This document shows positions 3,330-8,690 of a stretch of DNA of 64,000 bases, one piece after another. A program made the position numbers and the translations under genes. The notes beneath the pieces were generated by a model. It did not search any database and was not told the DNA's origin. It was given only the letters and a program-made list of their open reading frames with translations. Origin of the DNA: an uncultured Roseobacter sp. (GTDB lineage: Bacteria; Pseudomonadota; Alphaproteobacteria; Rhodobacterales; Rhodobacteraceae); NCBI RefSeq assembly GCF_947493125.1, contig NZ_CANLQB010000003.1, positions 186,001 through 250,000 of the forward strand, given 5' to 3'. The first letter of the stretch is position 1. Each line of letters begins with the position of its first letter.

Positions 3330-4286
3330 TCAGCCCACGATCATCTCCGATTGGCGCACGATGACCTCTGCCTGTTTGATGGAGGCGATGTCGACGAGGC
3401 GGCCCTTGTAGACCGTGGCGCCTTCGCCCTTGGCCTTGGCCTCTTCCATGGCGGCGAGGATCTCGCGCGCCTCGGTGACGGCTTCGTCGGAGGGGGTGAA
3501 GACCTCGTTAGCGATGGCCACCTGTTTGGGGTGGATCGCCCATTTGCCGACCATGCCGAGCGTGGCGGAGCGACGGGCCTGTGCGCGGAAGCCCTCGTCA
3601 TCAGAGAAGTCGCCAAACGGGCCATCGACCGGCAGCACGCCATGTGTGCGGCAGGCGGCAACGATGGCGGCCTGGGCCCAGTGCCACGGGTCCGACCAGT
3701 GTTTCTGGCCCTCACGGATCATGTAGTAGTTCTCCTGCGTGCCGCCGATGCCGGTGGTGGCCATGCCCATGGAAGCGGCGAAATCGGCCGCGCCGAGGCT
3801 CATCGCGGCGAGACGCGGGGAGCTGGCCGCGATCTCTTCCACATGGGCGATGCCGGCGGCGGATTCGATGATGACCTCGAAGGTGATCTTTTTGCTGCGG
3901 CCTTTGGCGGCCTCGATGGCTGTGACCAGCGCGTCAACCGCATAGATGTCCGCCGCGCAGCCCACTTTGGGGATCATGATCTGGTCGAGCCGGTCACCCG
4001 CCTGCTCCATCAGGTCGACCACATCGCGGTACCAGTAGGGCGTGTCGAGACCGTTGATGCGAACCGAGAGCGTCTTGTTGCCCCAGTCGATGTCCGAGAT
4101 GGCCGCGATGATGTTGGCGCGCGCGCTGTCCTTGTCGGACGGGGCCACGCTGTCTTCGAGATCGAGGTTGATCACATCGGCGGCTGAGGCGGCCATTTTC
4201 TCAAAAATCGCGGGGCGCGAGCCGGGGCCAAAGAGCTGGCAGCGGTTGGGGCGGGCAGGCGGTGTGGGTTGGAGGCGGAAACTCAT
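3330..4286 (-). CDS. mcl1: L-malyl-CoA/beta-methylmalyl-CoA lyase
   Basis: The 318-aa product closely resembles, from memory, Mcl1 of Rhodobacter sphaeroides, including its length and start MSFRLQPTPPARPNRCQLFG. Mcl1 reversibly cleaves beta-methylmalyl-CoA to glyoxylate and propionyl-CoA and condenses acetyl-CoA with glyoxylate in the ethylmalonyl-CoA pathway of acetate assimilation. It belongs to the HpcH/HpaI citrate lyase beta family. Seen in sequence: the NLDLEDSVAP acidic/Mg2+ region, the FEVIIESAAGIAHVEEIAA barrel strand, and GMVGKWAIHPKQV near the C terminus. The start at 4286 was chosen over an upstream in-frame Met because family members begin here. A paralogous thioesterase (Mcl2) is a less likely alternative. 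Confidence 0.92.
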   Translation of the reverse strand: MSFRLQPTPPARPNRCQLFGPGSRPAIFEKMAASAADVINLDLEDSVAPSDKDSARANIIAAISDIDWGNKTLSVRINGLDTPYWYRDVVDLMEQAGDRLDQIMIPKVGCAADIYAVDALVTAIEAAKGRSKKITFEVIIESAAGIAHVEEIAASSPRLAAMSLGAADFAASMGMATTGIGGTQENYYMIREGQKHWSDPWHWAQAAIVAACRTHGVLPVDGPFGDFSDDEGFRAQARRSATLGMVGKWAIHPKQVAIANEVFTPSDEAVTEAREILAAMEEAKAKGEGATVYKGRLVDIASIKQAEVIVRQSEMIVG

Positions 4287-4334
4287 GTCGGGCCCTTGAG
4301 TAATAAAATTACAATCGTGTCGCGCCTGTTGGTA

Positions 4335-4347
4335 TGAAATTGCGTAG
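4335..4347. promoter_or_regulatory. Second copy of the 13-base word TGAAATTGCGTAG
   Basis: Identical to 2249-2261. Here it is followed by TGCAA (4353-4357) and TTGCA (4365-4369), a small inverted repeat. It lies 49 bases upstream of the mcl1 start, so it could control mcl1 or dgcN. Confidence 0.35.
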
Positions 4348-4431
4348 AATGCTGCAAGTGCATTTTGCAACTGCAGCAATGGATTCGCGATGCCTGCCGT
4401 TAAGGATTGCTGAATTCTTCGCCACGTTGGT

Positions 4432-4451
4432 CAAATATTCGAAGATATTTG
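4432..4451. promoter_or_regulatory. Palindrome upstream of dgcN, candidate operator
   Basis: CAAATAT (4432-4438) and ATATTTG (4445-4451) are perfect inverted arms with a 6-base spacer. The site is AT-rich within GC-rich DNA and lies about 87 bases before the dgcN start codon, in the 251-base gap between mcl1 and dgcN. It looks like a dimeric regulator site; the protein that binds it is unknown. Confidence 0.45.
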
Positions 4452-4537
4452 CGTCTATGGCGCCAGATCCTCTTCATTCGAGATGTCTTTGCGGGGCAAT
4501 GAGGAGAAATTGCAGCGACTTTGACGGAGGCTTTCCC

Positions 4538-5542
4538 ATGATCCAGACACCTTACCTTTTGTTCCTCGGCGACGCACCGGACCAGCTTGCCGCGAAGGTG
4601 GCCCAGGGGATCAAGGACTGGCGCCCTGAAAACGCGGTGGGCCAGTTCCGCCTGCCAGGTTGTGGCGCGGATATGGGGCTCGCCGACATGAGCTTGGAGG
4701 AAGGTCTGGCGGCGGGGGCCAAGACGCTGGTCATCGGTGTGGCCAACCGCGGCGGCGTGATCTCGGCGGAGTGGAAAGTGGTGCTTGTGAAGGCGCTGCA
4801 GCTTGGCTACGACCTCGCTGCCGGTCTGCACAATCTGCTGCGCAACGAGGATGAGCTGCAGGCCGCTTCGAAAGTGCATGGCGGCACGCTGCATGACGTG
4901 CGCGTGCCCACGGTGGCCTATCCGATTGCGAACGGTCAGAAGCGGACGGGCAAGCGCGCGCTGGCGGTTGGGACCGATTGCTCCTGCGGCAAGATGTACA
5001 CCGCGATGTCGATGGATGCGGAGATGGTCAAGCGCGGGATGAGGTCCGATTTCCGCGCAACCGGCCAGACTGGCATCCTGATCACCGGCAAGGGCGTGCC
5101 ACTGGATGCGGTGATTGCCGATTTCATGGCGGGTGCGGTGGAGTATCTGACGCCGGACAACGACGCAGACCATTGGGACCACATCGAGGGACAGGGGAGC
5201 CTGTTCCACGTATCCTATTCCGGCGTGACGATGGCGCTGATCCACGGCGGTCAGCCCGATGCGCTGATCCTCTGCCACGAGCCGACGCGGACGCATATGC
5301 GGGGTCTTCCGCATTATGGGCTGCCGTCGCTGGAGACGCTGCGGGACACGGCGTTGCCGTTTGCGCGTGTGGCCAACCCGGCGTGCCAGGTCACCGGCGT
5401 GTCGGTCAACACCAAGGCGCTGGATGAGGCGGCGGCGAAAGCCTGTCTGCAGGAGATCGAGGACCGGATGAACCTGCCTGCGACTGATCCGTTCCGCTTT
5501 GGGGCGGGCAAGCTGGTGGATGCGCTGCTCGAGATCGGTTAG
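4538..5542 (+). CDS. dgcN: DUF1611 family D-glutamate N-acetyltransferase, DgcN type
   Basis: A 334-aa DUF1611 protein. The domain has an N-terminal Rossmann-like part and a P-loop-like motif (VGTDCSCGKM, about residues 145-153). In marine proteobacteria a DUF1611 protein next to an enolase-superfamily epimerase forms the DgcN-DgcA pair: DgcN acetylates D-glutamate to N-acetyl-D-glutamate. The pairing with dgcA 60 bases downstream is the main support for the name; the family also includes less well assigned proteins. The start at 4538 has a good ribosome site (GGAGG at 4526-4530). The palindrome at 4432-4451 and the word at 4335 lie in its promoter region. Confidence 0.75.
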   Translation: MIQTPYLLFLGDAPDQLAAKVAQGIKDWRPENAVGQFRLPGCGADMGLADMSLEEGLAAGAKTLVIGVANRGGVISAEWKVVLVKALQLGYDLAAGLHNLLRNEDELQAASKVHGGTLHDVRVPTVAYPIANGQKRTGKRALAVGTDCSCGKMYTAMSMDAEMVKRGMRSDFRATGQTGILITGKGVPLDAVIADFMAGAVEYLTPDNDADHWDHIEGQGSLFHVSYSGVTMALIHGGQPDALILCHEPTRTHMRGLPHYGLPSLETLRDTALPFARVANPACQVTGVSVNTKALDEAAAKACLQEIEDRMNLPATDPFRFGAGKLVDALLEIG

Positions 5543-5602
5543 CGGCAGGGCAAGCGTCGCGGATCGTGTCGTGAGTATTTTGGGAAGAATGAAGGAGCGG
5601 GC

Positions 5603-6568
5603 ATGCGCATAGAGGTCAGCCGTGATGTTTTTCGGCTTGCTCAGGTCTTCACGATTTCCCGGGGCTCGCGCACCGAGGCGCAGGTTCTGACGGTGCGGGT
5701 GTCAGATGGCGCGCATCAGGGCTGGGGCGAGTGTGTGCCTTACGCGCGCTACGATGAGACACTGGAGAGTGTGACGACTGAGATCGACGAGTTGCCCTCG
5801 GATGTGACGCGCGCTGCGCTGGCGGATCTTTTGCCCGCGGGAGCCGCGCGCAATGCGGTGGACTGCGCGCTTTGGGATCTGGAGGCCAAGCGTGCCGGCA
5901 GACGGGTTTGGGAGCTTGCCGGTCTGGCGGCGCCGGGGCCGGAGATCACCGCTTATACGCTGTCACTGGACACGGCGGAGAAGATGCGGGCACAGGCGGC
6001 GGCGCATGCGCATCGGCCCTTGCTGAAGATCAAGCTGGGCACACCGGATGACATGCCGCGGTTGGAGGCTGTGCGGGCGGGCGCGCCGGAGGCCCGGATC
6101 ATCGTGGATGCGAATGAGGGCTGGAGCGCGGAGGTCTATGCCGATCTTGCGCCGCATCTGCTGCGTCTGGGCGTGCAGCTTGTCGAGCAACCCTTGCCTG
6201 CCGGGCAGGATGACGCGCTCCTCGGGATGGAGCGACCGGTTCCTGTTTGTGCTGACGAGAGTTGTCATGACCGGGCGAGCTTGCCCGCGCTAAAAGGCAA
6301 ATACGACGTGGTCAACATCAAGCTCGACAAGACCGGCGGGCTGACCGAAGCTTTGGCACTGCGCGATGCGGCACGGGCGGAGGGCTATGACGTCATGGTC
6401 GGTTGCATGGTCGGCTCGAGCTTGGCGATGGCGCCCGCGACGCTGGTGGCGCAGGGCGCGGCGGTGACCGATCTCGATGGGCCGCTGTTGCTGGCTGTGG
6501 ATCGGCCGTGCCCTTTGGGTTTTGATGCTGCAGGGGTACATCCGCCTGTTGCTGCACTCTGGGGGTAG
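5603..6568 (+). CDS. dgcA: Enolase-superfamily N-acetyl-D-glutamate racemase, DgcA type
   Basis: A 321-aa member of the dipeptide epimerase-like branch of the enolase superfamily. The capping domain covers about residues 1-110 and the barrel follows. Barrel catalytic features are visible: KxK at 142-144 (LKIKLG), metal ligands Asp169 (VDAN), Glu195 (VEQP) and Asp218 (ADES), and the opposite-face lysine in NIKLDKTGG (about 240). Next to dgcN the likely reaction is racemisation of N-acetyl-D-Glu to N-acetyl-L-Glu, which a deacylase would convert to L-Glu. L-Ala-D/L-Glu epimerase (YcjG type, murein peptide recycling) is the main alternative. It ends 4 bases before the exonuclease gene. Confidence 0.75.
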   Translation: MRIEVSRDVFRLAQVFTISRGSRTEAQVLTVRVSDGAHQGWGECVPYARYDETLESVTTEIDELPSDVTRAALADLLPAGAARNAVDCALWDLEAKRAGRRVWELAGLAAPGPEITAYTLSLDTAEKMRAQAAAHAHRPLLKIKLGTPDDMPRLEAVRAGAPEARIIVDANEGWSAEVYADLAPHLLRLGVQLVEQPLPAGQDDALLGMERPVPVCADESCHDRASLPALKGKYDVVNIKLDKTGGLTEALALRDAARAEGYDVMVGCMVGSSLAMAPATLVAQGAAVTDLDGPLLLAVDRPCPLGFDAAGVHPPVAALWG

Positions 6569-6572
6569 GCGG

Positions 6573-7202
6573 ATGCGCTCTGTCGTCGTCTATGACTGCG
6601 AGTTTCTGACCGCGCCCGGCGCGCCGCAGCGCTTCTGGTGCGGGCCGGTGGATCCGGACCCGCTGCCGATCCAGATCGGTGCGGTTCGACTGGAGCTGGC
6701 AGCGCCTTTTGCCATTTCGGAACCGGTGGGCTGGTATGTCCACCCGGTGGATCGGGATGAGCGCGCCGTGCCGCTGCATGACCTGGTGACCAAGTTGACC
6801 GGGATCACACAGGAGAGGATCGACGCGGACGGGATTGCGCTTGCCGACGCCCTGGTGCAGCTCGACGCTTTTGCCGCAGGGGCCCCGCTGCTTGCCTGGG
6901 GCAAGGATGAGCTGTTGTCGCTGGCGGCGGGGTTGTTCGTGCAGGACTTGGCCAGCCCGATCCCCGCCGGCCGCTTTCGCAGTGCGGTGCCGCTGGTGGT
7001 CAAGGCGGGCGAGCCTGTTGAGACAGTCGAGACGCTGCGCAGCCATACGATCTGCGCGCATTTTGGATTGGCGGACGCAGGTCCCGCGCATGATGCGCGT
7101 GGGGATGCCATATCGGTGGCGACGGTATTGCAACACTTGCTTGCAACCGGGCGGTTGGCCGACCTAGATGTGAGGGACCTCTGCGGCGGGATGACTGATT
7201 GA
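6573..7202 (+). CDS. DEDD-type 3'-5' exonuclease
   Basis: A 209-aa protein of the DnaQ/RNase T exonuclease superfamily. Motif I is near the N terminus (VYDCEF, Asp8 and Glu10), an AWGKDE block lies mid-protein, and motif III is AHDARGDA, where the His and Asp point to the DEDDh subtype. It would remove nucleotides from 3' ends with two divalent metals. It starts 4 bases after the dgcA stop, so it is probably co-transcribed, although nothing links it to D-amino acids. The start at 6573 was chosen because it yields the exonuclease fold directly; longer in-frame starts overlap dgcA. Confidence 0.75.
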   Translation: MRSVVVYDCEFLTAPGAPQRFWCGPVDPDPLPIQIGAVRLELAAPFAISEPVGWYVHPVDRDERAVPLHDLVTKLTGITQERIDADGIALADALVQLDAFAAGAPLLAWGKDELLSLAAGLFVQDLASPIPAGRFRSAVPLVVKAGEPVETVETLRSHTICAHFGLADAGPAHDARGDAISVATVLQHLLATGRLADLDVRDLCGGMTD

Positions 7203-7258
7203 TCCGATAGGATTGTCGCGCCAGAGATGCAGATGAGGGACGATAAGGAGAACGAACG

Positions 7259-8119
7259 ATGCGCACCGTTTATGTGAATGGCGACTACCTGCCGGAAAAC
7301 GAAGCCACGGTGTCGATCTTTGATCGCGGGTTTCTGATGGCGGACGGTGTCTATGAGGTGACGTCGGTACTGGACGGCAAGCTGATTGATTTTGACGGTC
7401 ACGCCGTACGGCTGGAGCGCTCCCTGCGGGAACTCGACATGAAAACCCCGATCAGCAAGGAGGACCTGCTCGAGGTGCATCGAGAGTTGGTGCGGCTGAA
7501 CGGGATCGAAGAGGGCATGATCTATCTGCAGATCACCAGGGGTGCACCCGGCGACCGGGATTTCGTCTTCCCCGACCCTGAGACGACCGCGCCTACGATT
7601 GTGCTCTTTACCCAGAACAAGCCCGGGCTTTCGGACAGCCCGGCCGCGAAAAAGGGAATGAAAATCATAAGTATAGAGGATATCCGCTGGGGGCGGCGCG
7701 ACATCAAGACGGTGCAGCTGCTCTATCCCTCGATGGGTAAGATGATGGCTAAGAAGGCCGGCGCGGATGACGCCTGGATGATCGAGGATGGGTTCGTCAC
7801 CGAGGGCACGTCGAACAACGCCTACATCGTCAAGGGCAACAAGATCATCACCCGGGGCTTGAGCCATGACATCCTGCACGGGATCACCCGGGCGGCGGTG
7901 TTGCGCTTTGCGCGGGAGGCGCAGATGGAGGTCGAGGAGCGCAATTTCACCATCGACGAGGCGAAAGAGGCGGACGAGGCCTTCATCACCTCGGCCAGCA
8001 CCTTCGTGATGCCGGTTGTAGAGATCGACGGGGTGGCGTTGGGCGATGGGGTGCCGGGGCGGGTGGCTCCACGGCTGCGCGAGATCTATCTCGAAGAGAG
8101 TCTGAAGGCGGCCATCTAG
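7259..8119 (+). CDS. dat: D-amino-acid transaminase (class IV PLP)
   Basis: The 286-aa class IV aminotransferase fits the D-amino-acid transaminase group: NGDYLPENEATVSIFDRGF at the start, the PLP lysine in RDIKTVQLL (Lys150), Glu182 in TEGTSNNAY and a GITRAAVL cofactor loop. It would exchange amino groups between D-alanine, D-glutamate and their keto acids in the cytoplasm. A ribosome site (AAGGAG) lies just upstream of 7259. It follows dgcN, dgcA and the exonuclease on the same strand with a 56-base gap, so the locus plausibly makes and consumes D-glutamate. Branched-chain aminotransferase or aminodeoxychorismate lyase are related but fit less well. Confidence 0.85.
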   Translation: MRTVYVNGDYLPENEATVSIFDRGFLMADGVYEVTSVLDGKLIDFDGHAVRLERSLRELDMKTPISKEDLLEVHRELVRLNGIEEGMIYLQITRGAPGDRDFVFPDPETTAPTIVLFTQNKPGLSDSPAAKKGMKIISIEDIRWGRRDIKTVQLLYPSMGKMMAKKAGADDAWMIEDGFVTEGTSNNAYIVKGNKIITRGLSHDILHGITRAAVLRFAREAQMEVEERNFTIDEAKEADEAFITSASTFVMPVVEIDGVALGDGVPGRVAPRLREIYLEESLKAAI

Positions 8120-8129
8120 ATCCGGCGGG

Positions 8130-8690
8130 TCAGTTCATCACCGCGCCGGGCTCATGGCCACAACGGCTCATCATTTTGAGGTATGCCGCGGTAAACCCTG
8201 ACAGAGACACGGTTGTGACATGCTCGCGACCCGAACTCTGCAGACCCCTGCGGTAGATGATCATCGTCTGGGCCGTCCGCATCGACTGCAGCATCCAAAG
8301 ACTGTCCCGCGCCCACGGCGCGGCCAGCGCATATTCAAAGACGCCCTCTTCAAAACCGGTTGTCAGCGACATGTCAGCGCCGGTGCCGTCGTCAAATTCA
8401 TAGATCACAGAATCTTCAGCCCTGATCTGGGTGGCGTAGCCCCGTGGCGCGCGTTCTTCCAGGGTTGGGAGAGGATATGCGTCGGGTGGACCCGCGTCGC
8501 CATTGGTGATTTCAAGCCGCAGGGTCGGCTGGCCATCTCCACCGGTCCAGGCTGTGCAGGTCCGACGCAGATCCTGACCGGTGTCGAGCTCCTCCACAAG
8601 CACGATCCAGTCCTTATAGTCCCAATACTCCCCGGCCTCAGTGATGCTGGAGATAATAGTCGTTGCCAAGAACGCCAGAAAGACCCGCAT
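8130..8690 (-). CDS. Secreted protein, weakly like IalB
   Basis: I do not recognise this 186-aa protein with confidence. Starting at 8690 (MRVFLAFLATTIISSITEAG) gives a plausible signal peptide, so it is probably periplasmic. The C-terminal TVSLSGFTAAYLKMMSRCG resembles the end of invasion-associated locus B (IalB) proteins, which end in a GFTAA block followed by a Cys; a second Cys at RRTCTAW may form a disulfide with it. It has a Trp/acidic-rich N-terminal region (EYWDYKDWIVLVEE). It converges on the transaminase gene with an 10-base gap. Function unknown. Confidence 0.6.
   Translation of the reverse strand: MRVFLAFLATTIISSITEAGEYWDYKDWIVLVEELDTGQDLRRTCTAWTGGDGQPTLRLEITNGDAGPPDAYPLPTLEERAPRGYATQIRAEDSVIYEFDDGTGADMSLTTGFEEGVFEYALAAPWARDSLWMLQSMRTAQTMIIYRRGLQSSGREHVTTVSLSGFTAAYLKMMSRCGHEPGAVMN

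What the first reader, a model, noticed from the sequence alone, without database searches (positions are those of the whole stretch)
4538..8119. Possible complete D-glutamate island: dgcN, dgcA and a D-amino-acid transaminase, with an exonuclease
DgcN-DgcA together form a D-Glu to N-acetyl-L-Glu route known from marine proteobacteria. Here a class IV D-amino-acid transaminase follows, which would feed D-Glu into it from D-Ala or other D-amino acids. A 3'-5' exonuclease is sandwiched 4 bases after dgcA.
Basis: partly seen in the sequence, partly recalled or inferred. Interest (0 to 1): 0.55.

Follow-up and report, generated by a model that had tools for sequence, protein, structure and literature searches.

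The report
Conserved D-amino-acid gene trio
Three neighbouring genes, two for a known D-glutamate breakdown route and one for an enzyme that should swap amino groups between D-amino acids, form a unit kept in most sampled members of one family of mainly marine bacteria, while the exonuclease gene between them is a passenger that most relatives lack.

Summary
dgcN (4538-5542) and dgcA (5603-6568) pass NCBI's equivalog cut-offs; dat (7259-8119) passes a D-amino-acid-transaminase subfamily cut-off. A weakly matching DEDD-type exonuclease (6573-7202) starts 4 nt after dgcA. In 100 genomes of the family (one per genus) 80 have DgcN over cut-off, and in 75 of those dat lies downstream on the same strand within 6 kb, at a median 22 nt after dgcA. 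Of 35 DgcN genomes from other alphaproteobacterial families 32 have dat, but 1 has it linked. So the trio is a conserved, nearly family-specific unit. The exonuclease occupies that slot in 3 of 100 genera. Two complications: dgcA-dat survives without dgcN in 5 genomes, and the family's DAT has Phe where the canonical carboxylate trap has His (94 of 94). Most likely role: DAT moves D-amino nitrogen onto 2-oxoglutarate and DgcN-DgcA pull the D-Glu irreversibly to N-acetyl-L-Glu. Activities, flux direction and co-transcription are inferred. The pathway is known; the linkage and DAT subtype look like a new variant.

The parts
4538..5542 (+). dgcN, D-glutamate N-acetyltransferase family (DUF1611)
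   Evidence: NF041892 DgcN equivalog 540.8 bits, cut-off 480; PF07755 and PF17396; 557.9 bits to PDB 7xrj over residues 1-331
5603..6568 (+). dgcA, N-acetyl-D-glutamate racemase family (enolase superfamily)
   Evidence: NF042940 DgcA equivalog 505.4 bits, cut-off 400; fourteen residues checked (among them K142, K144, D169, E195, D218, K240, D290, D292) are invariant in 85 family DgcAs, except R23, which is K in 3
7259..8119 (+). dat, class IV aminotransferase of the PRK06680 D-amino-acid-transaminase subfamily, Tyr-Arg-Phe type
   Evidence: NF005209 369.5 bits, cut-off 320; K150, E182, Y32, R100 and F102 invariant in 94 of 94 family DATs
6573..7202 (+). DEDD-type exonuclease-like gene, probable passenger in the dgcA-dat gap
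   Evidence: PHROG 192 at 1.5e-9; RNase_T below cut-off; relative in 7 of 100 family genomes and in this slot in 3
3333..4286 (-). divergent HpcH/HpaI-type CoA-ester lyase ('ccl'); neighbour that marks the locus, not part of the unit
   Evidence: PF03328 142.3 bits; divergent upstream of dgcN in 55 of 78 family loci with room for it

Best explanation
dgcN-dgcA-dat is an operon kept across this Roseobacter-type family that gathers nitrogen from D-amino acids. DAT transfers the amino group of D-Ala (and probably other D-amino acids) to 2-oxoglutarate, giving D-Glu and a 2-oxo acid (inferred). DgcN acetylates D-Glu and DgcA racemises N-acetyl-D-Glu to N-acetyl-L-Glu (published for homologues; here inferred from family membership). 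N-acetyl-L-Glu is then hydrolysed to L-Glu or used for arginine synthesis (inferred). The irreversible acetylation would pull the reversible transamination. The exonuclease in the dgcA-dat gap is a passenger.
For: Family cut-offs passed by all three. Linkage in 75 of 80 family genomes with DgcN and 73 of 80 named relatives, 7 undecidable. Operon-like spacing: dgcA-dat median 22 nt, 55 of 75 at 100 nt or less; dgcN-dgcA median 71.5 nt, 9 of 78 with a 4-base overlap. Better kept than the neighbour ccl (55 of 78). Linked in 1 of 35 DgcN genomes of other families although 32 of them have dat. Glutamate racemase is present in this genome (145.9 bits, just under the curated cut-off 146.65) and in 93 of 100 at 1e-15 (30 of 100 over the curated cut-off), so wall D-Glu need not come from DAT. 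A Rhodobacteraceae strain annotated with all three activities grew on D-Glu, D-Ala, D-Ser, D-Lys and D-Phe (PMC11747546, passages).
Against: No activity, transcript or phenotype of these genes was available. dat is present in 16 family genomes without DgcN over cut-off, so it has a use without dgcN. The DAT lacks the canonical His of the carboxylate trap and its place 35 (numbering of the Bacillus enzyme), where a Lys was proposed to hold the gamma-carboxylate of 2-oxoglutarate (PMC10003956), is Ser in the window and in 85 of 94. A weak terminator-like hairpin lies between dgcN and dgcA (5557-5574), and the scan found 9 such sites against 2.5 expected and no sigma-70-like promoter (0 against 1.0) in 4200-8300. 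In the window dat starts 690 nt after dgcA.
Confidence: 0.58

Rival explanations
1. D-Glu/D-Ala balance for peptidoglycan: DAT exchanges the D-Ala and D-Glu pools, or supplies D-Glu where glutamate racemase is missing, and DgcN-DgcA are the overflow valve.
For: dat is in 96 of 100 family genomes, also in 16 without DgcN. 7 of 100 genomes have no murI match at 1e-15; 6 of the 7 have dat (all but G028), among them the 5 that are at least 90% complete.
Against: murI is present in the window's genome and in 93 of 100. dat is so common (96 of 100) that its presence in murI-less genomes is not informative. The tight linkage with a D-Glu consuming pair is not needed for this role.
Confidence: 0.22
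2. DgcA here works mainly, or also, as an L-Ala-D/L-Glu epimerase in the recycling of wall peptides; DgcN is an add-on that can be lost.
For: 6 family genomes have DgcA over cut-off but no DgcN, and in 5 dgcA stays next to dat. In the class 11 of 48 DgcA genomes have no DgcN over cut-off, whereas all 37 DgcN genomes over cut-off have DgcA. The E. coli epimerase 1jpd is the second-best solved match, and the DLDG motif is kept in 85 of 85.
Against: DgcA misses the E. coli-type epimerase cut-off (305.7 bits, cut-off 343) and passes the DgcA cut-off. 80 of 86 family DgcA genomes have DgcN.
Confidence: 0.13
3. Inherited neighbourhood only: dat sits beside dgcNA because the whole chromosomal stretch is conserved, without a joint function.
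For: accA, ccl, DUF1244 and pyk recur around the unit in family loci.
Against: ccl is kept in 55 of 78 loci on the other strand; dat is kept in 75 of 80 on the same strand at operon spacing. The three genes also lie in a row in G164, assigned to another family, whose nearest DATs in the tree belong to family genomes.
Confidence: 0.07

Closest known systems
DgcN-DgcA D-glutamate pathway (Yu et al. 2023, ISME J 17:537-548; not held, seen as a citation and through passages of PMC12363236 and PMC10845958)
   Same: DgcN and DgcA orthologues over the equivalog cut-offs, adjacent and in the same order.
   Different: dat is linked to them. I could not check whether that paper already shows dat in its gene clusters.
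D-Ala use through D-Ala aminotransferase in Pseudoalteromonas sp. CF6-2 (Yu et al. 2022, AEM 88:e02219-21; title seen in a reference list)
   Same: A D-amino-acid transaminase as the first step of D-Ala use in a marine bacterium (from the title).
   Different: Here the transaminase gene lies next to dgcNA and has Phe instead of His in the carboxylate trap; gene context in CF6-2 not seen.
Group I (canonical) D-amino-acid transaminase, Bacillus sp. YM-1 type (PDB 1DAA; PMC10003956, PMC12429042, passages)
   Same: Class IV fold family, Tyr31, Arg98, catalytic Lys and the YxQ motif kept.
   Different: His100 is Phe in 94 of 94 family DATs.
L-Ala-D/L-Glu epimerase of E. coli (PDB 1jpd)
   Same: Best-matching characterised relative by name: 268.8 bits; catalytic lysines and DLDG kept.
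   Different: Below the cut-off of the E. coli-type epimerase model and above that of DgcA.

Membership tests
DgcN D-glutamate N-acetyltransferase | passes the NCBIfam DgcN equivalog cut-off, full length | tested here: met
   540.8 bits against 480, residues 5-330 of 334
DgcN D-glutamate N-acetyltransferase | N-acetylates D-Glu with acetyl-CoA | not testable with these tools
   needs an enzyme assay
DgcA N-acetyl-D-glutamate racemase | passes the NCBIfam DgcA equivalog cut-off | tested here: met
   505.4 bits against 400
DgcA N-acetyl-D-glutamate racemase | lysine pair and metal ligands of the enolase superfamily (roles recalled) | tested here: met
   K142, K144, D169, E195, D218, K240 present and invariant in 85 of 85
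DgcA N-acetyl-D-glutamate racemase | gene adjacent to dgcN | tested here: met
   60 nt after dgcN in the window
L-Ala-D/L-Glu epimerase (E. coli type, PRK15129) | passes its equivalog cut-off | tested here: not met
   305.7 bits against 343
D-amino-acid transaminase, PRK06680 subfamily | passes the subfamily cut-off | tested here: met
   369.5 bits against 320; the same model rings over its cut-off in the B. subtilis control
D-amino-acid transaminase, TIGR01121 equivalog | passes the equivalog cut-off | tested here: not met
   235.3 bits against 277.45
Group I (canonical) D-amino-acid transaminase | Tyr-Arg-His carboxylate trap | tested here: not met
   Tyr32, Arg100, Phe102 in the window and in 94 of 94 family DATs
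Group II (non-canonical) D-amino-acid transaminase | Arg at place 26 and Phe at place 31 of the Bacillus numbering (PMC10003956, Table 2) | tested here: not met
   Met27 and Tyr32 of the window protein stand at these places
D-amino-acid transaminase (any) | exchanges amino groups between D-amino acids and 2-oxo acids | not testable with these tools
   needs an enzyme assay
DEDD 3'-5' exonuclease (RNase_T) | passes the Pfam cut-off | tested here: inconclusive
   window copy 13.9 bits against 24, gene in the same slot of L097 28.2; PHROG 192 at 1.5e-9

The most novel reading that the evidence does not exclude
The family's DAT is an undescribed Tyr-Arg-Phe subclass of D-amino-acid transaminase, recruited into the dgcNA operon as the entry of a general D-amino-acid nitrogen funnel: many D-amino acids are transaminated to D-Glu, and one irreversible acetylation-racemisation exit turns them all into L-Glu, without an oxidase or dehydrogenase.
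Probability: 0.3. Interest if true: 0.55.

Novelty: new variant of a known kind. Interest (0 to 1): 0.4.

Why it matters
D-amino acids are a part of the slowly used organic nitrogen of the sea, and dgcN in Tara Oceans and polar metagenomes was reported to be mostly alphaproteobacterial (PMC12363236, passage). A conserved dat in the same unit predicts that it handles more D-amino acids than D-Glu, which can be tested directly by deletion. It also points to a transaminase type outside the two described groups; the same paper says that earlier marine counts of DAT were mainly gammaproteobacterial (passage), so this type may have been undercounted (inference).

Tried and rejected
Exonuclease as part of the unit: rejected. 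A relative at E 1e-8 is in 7 of 100 family genomes and lies between dgcA and dat in 3. In the 17 loci (window included) whose dgcA-dat gap exceeds 250 nt other ORFs are seen: one is a NUDIX protein by Pfam (L041); the other labels I gave (transporter-like, phosphoesterase-like) are by eye.

An N-formylglutamate amidohydrolase as the missing deacylase: a cluster of ORFs, one member of which was tested and is PF05013 (L128), lies at a median 2 kb from the dat start, on the opposite strand in 30 of 31 loci, of 101 loci clustered, three of which are not of this locus. I saw none between dat and pyk in the window; the own genome has 5 PF05013 genes elsewhere. Left as a lead.

Constant partners of dgcNA outside the family: none stood out by eye in 20 loci, taken from the 35 non-family genomes with DgcN over cut-off; dgcN and dgcA were found together in 20 of 20.

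DAT as a substitute for MurI: cannot be decided, since dat is in 96 of 100 genomes.

Literature: of 7 papers holding at least two of DgcN, DgcA and D-glutamate I opened two, by passages (PMC12363236; PMC10845958), and also passages of PMC11747546 and PMC9602339, PMC10003956 and PMC12429042. None of these passages mentions dat beside dgcNA. The listings showed nothing more on it. The two key papers are not held, so I cannot say that the linkage is unpublished.
Full report
WHAT IS THERE. The four genes are open and at the stated coordinates. dgcN and dgcA pass NCBI's equivalog cut-offs for these enzymes (540.8 against 480; 505.4 against 400). dat passes the PRK06680 subfamily cut-off (369.5 against 320) and misses the TIGR01121 equivalog cut-off (235.3 against 277.45). 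DgcN aligns over residues 1-331 with PDB 7xrj. The best solved matches of DgcA are 4gfi and the E. coli L-Ala-D/L-Glu epimerase 1jpd, those of DAT are D-alanine aminotransferases (9pxs, 3lqs, 1DAA). The nearest named carriers of the DgcN are Roseobacter sp. WL0113 (95%), other Roseobacter (92-93%) and Tateyamaria (89-93%). That the family is Rhodobacteraceae/Roseobacteraceae is inferred from these names; the G genomes bear none.

In 100 genomes of the same family, one per genus, DgcN is over cut-off in 80 (81 with any match), DgcA in 86 and dat in 96. By the printed places dat lies downstream of dgcN on the same strand within 6 kb in 75 of 80; in 58 of the 75 the distance from dgcN to dat is at most 1250 nt, room for dgcA alone. 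The five exceptions: G018 (dat on the other strand, about 3.2 kb off), G054 and G090 (dat on another contig), G005 and G062 (dgcA-dat together, dgcN elsewhere). Of 80 named relatives 73 show the linkage; the other 7 loci end 576-1256 nt after dgcN and cannot tell. The gap from dgcA to dat has a median of 22 nt, 55 of 75 at 100 nt or less; from dgcN to dgcA the median is 71.5 nt, 62 of 78 at 100 nt or less and 9 of 78 with a 4-base overlap. Starts were set by alignment, so single gaps may be off by some codons.

NEARLY FAMILY-SPECIFIC. In 142 alphaproteobacterial genomes, mostly one per family, DgcN is over cut-off in 37, DgcA in 48, dat in 80. Of the 35 DgcN genomes outside the family 32 have dat over cut-off; one, G164, has the three genes in a row. 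The nearest DATs to that of G164 are those of family genomes G080 and G007, which suggests transfer of the block or a blurred family border.

WHAT DOES NOT BELONG. The exonuclease starts 4 nt after dgcA, but a relative is found in 7 of 100 family genomes at E 1e-8 and between dgcA and dat in 3, the window included. Among 80 named relatives it is in the slot in 4, 6-13 nt after dgcA. Why it recurs there in distant genera is unexplained.

TWO COMPLICATIONS. First, dgcN can be missing while dgcA and dat stay. Six family genomes have DgcA over cut-off and no DgcN; in five (G010, G012, G034, G055, G093) dgcA and dat are adjacent. On the DAT and DgcA trees these five do not sit together as one group, but several of the splits have weak support, so several losses are likely rather than shown. 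The fourteen DgcA residues checked are kept in them, apart from R23K in G010; the DgcA of G008 was not fetched. DgcN over cut-off never occurs without DgcA (80 of 80 family genomes; 37 of 37 in the class); one below-cut-off DgcN hit (G190, 467.4 bits) has no DgcA match at 1e-80. DgcA may thus have a second task, perhaps dipeptide epimerisation. Second, the DAT. The canonical trap for the substrate carboxylate is Tyr-Arg-His; a second described group has an Arg-[Arg/Lys] pair (PMC10003956 and PMC12429042, passages). In 94 of 94 family DATs the His place is Phe (the dat of G054 and G090 was not fetched). I also took DATs of 30 genomes outside the family, chosen by me from 84 with a match: 23 have His and 7 Phe (one gene came in twice and was counted once; second copies in G139 and G204 were not fetched). 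Of the 101 Phe types 99 form one group in the tree with support 1.0; L250 and L261 fall outside. So the Phe type is not confined to the family and is not tied to dgcNA linkage alone.

MECHANISM. Shown here: gene identity at family level, conserved order, strand and spacing, and near restriction to one family. From the families and citing papers: DgcN is named D-glutamate N-acetyltransferase and DgcA N-acetyl-D-glutamate racemase (PMC11747546, passage), and class IV D-amino-acid transaminases exchange amino groups between D-amino acids and 2-oxo acids. Inferred: that DAT here makes D-Glu, that the flux runs to L-Glu, that the genes share a transcript. Against a shared transcript: a weak terminator-like hairpin between dgcN and dgcA at 5557-5574; the scan of 4200-8300 found 9 terminator-like sites against 2.5 in shuffles and no sigma-70-like promoter against 1.0. 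Glutamate racemase is present in this genome (145.9 bits, curated cut-off 146.65) and in 93 of 100 at 1e-15, 30 of 100 over the curated cut-off, so wall D-Glu need not depend on DAT. One Rhodobacteraceae strain with the three annotated activities grew on D-Glu, D-Ala, D-Ser, D-Lys and D-Phe (PMC11747546, passages); this agrees with the funnel but does not test it.

NOVELTY. The D-Glu pathway is published (Yu et al. 2023), and the same group published D-Ala use through D-Ala aminotransferase (Yu et al. 2022); I saw both only as citations. I rate it a new variant of a known kind, of moderate interest.

Noticed in passing
L055:4711-7175 (G000 contig 12) and L056:4161-6685 (G000 contig 16): The own genome has two further DUF1611 genes, each overlapping by 4 bases a 373-aa protein with an alanine-racemase N-terminal domain, nearest to ornithine racemase Orr but far below its cut-off (265.6 and 266.8 against 480). 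A DUF1611 plus PLP-racemase pair may be a parallel to DgcN plus DgcA for another D-amino acid.
   Followed up: partly
downstream of dat in family loci, e.g. L128:3331-4068: A likely N-formylglutamate amidohydrolase gene lies convergent about 2 kb from the dat start in 31 of 101 loci clustered, beside DUF1244 and pyk in those read; it could be a deacylase for N-acetyl-L-Glu, but the window lacks it there.
   Followed up: partly
family genomes G001, G015, G061, G083, G090: These genomes, at least 90% complete, have no murI match at 1e-15 but have dat; in G001, G015 and G083 it is linked to dgcNA. How they make D-Glu for the wall is open.
   Followed up: no
6573-7202, and L048, L097, L137, L145, L147, L213: Exonuclease-like genes recur in the same dgcA-dat slot in distant genera though they are rare overall.
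   Followed up: partly
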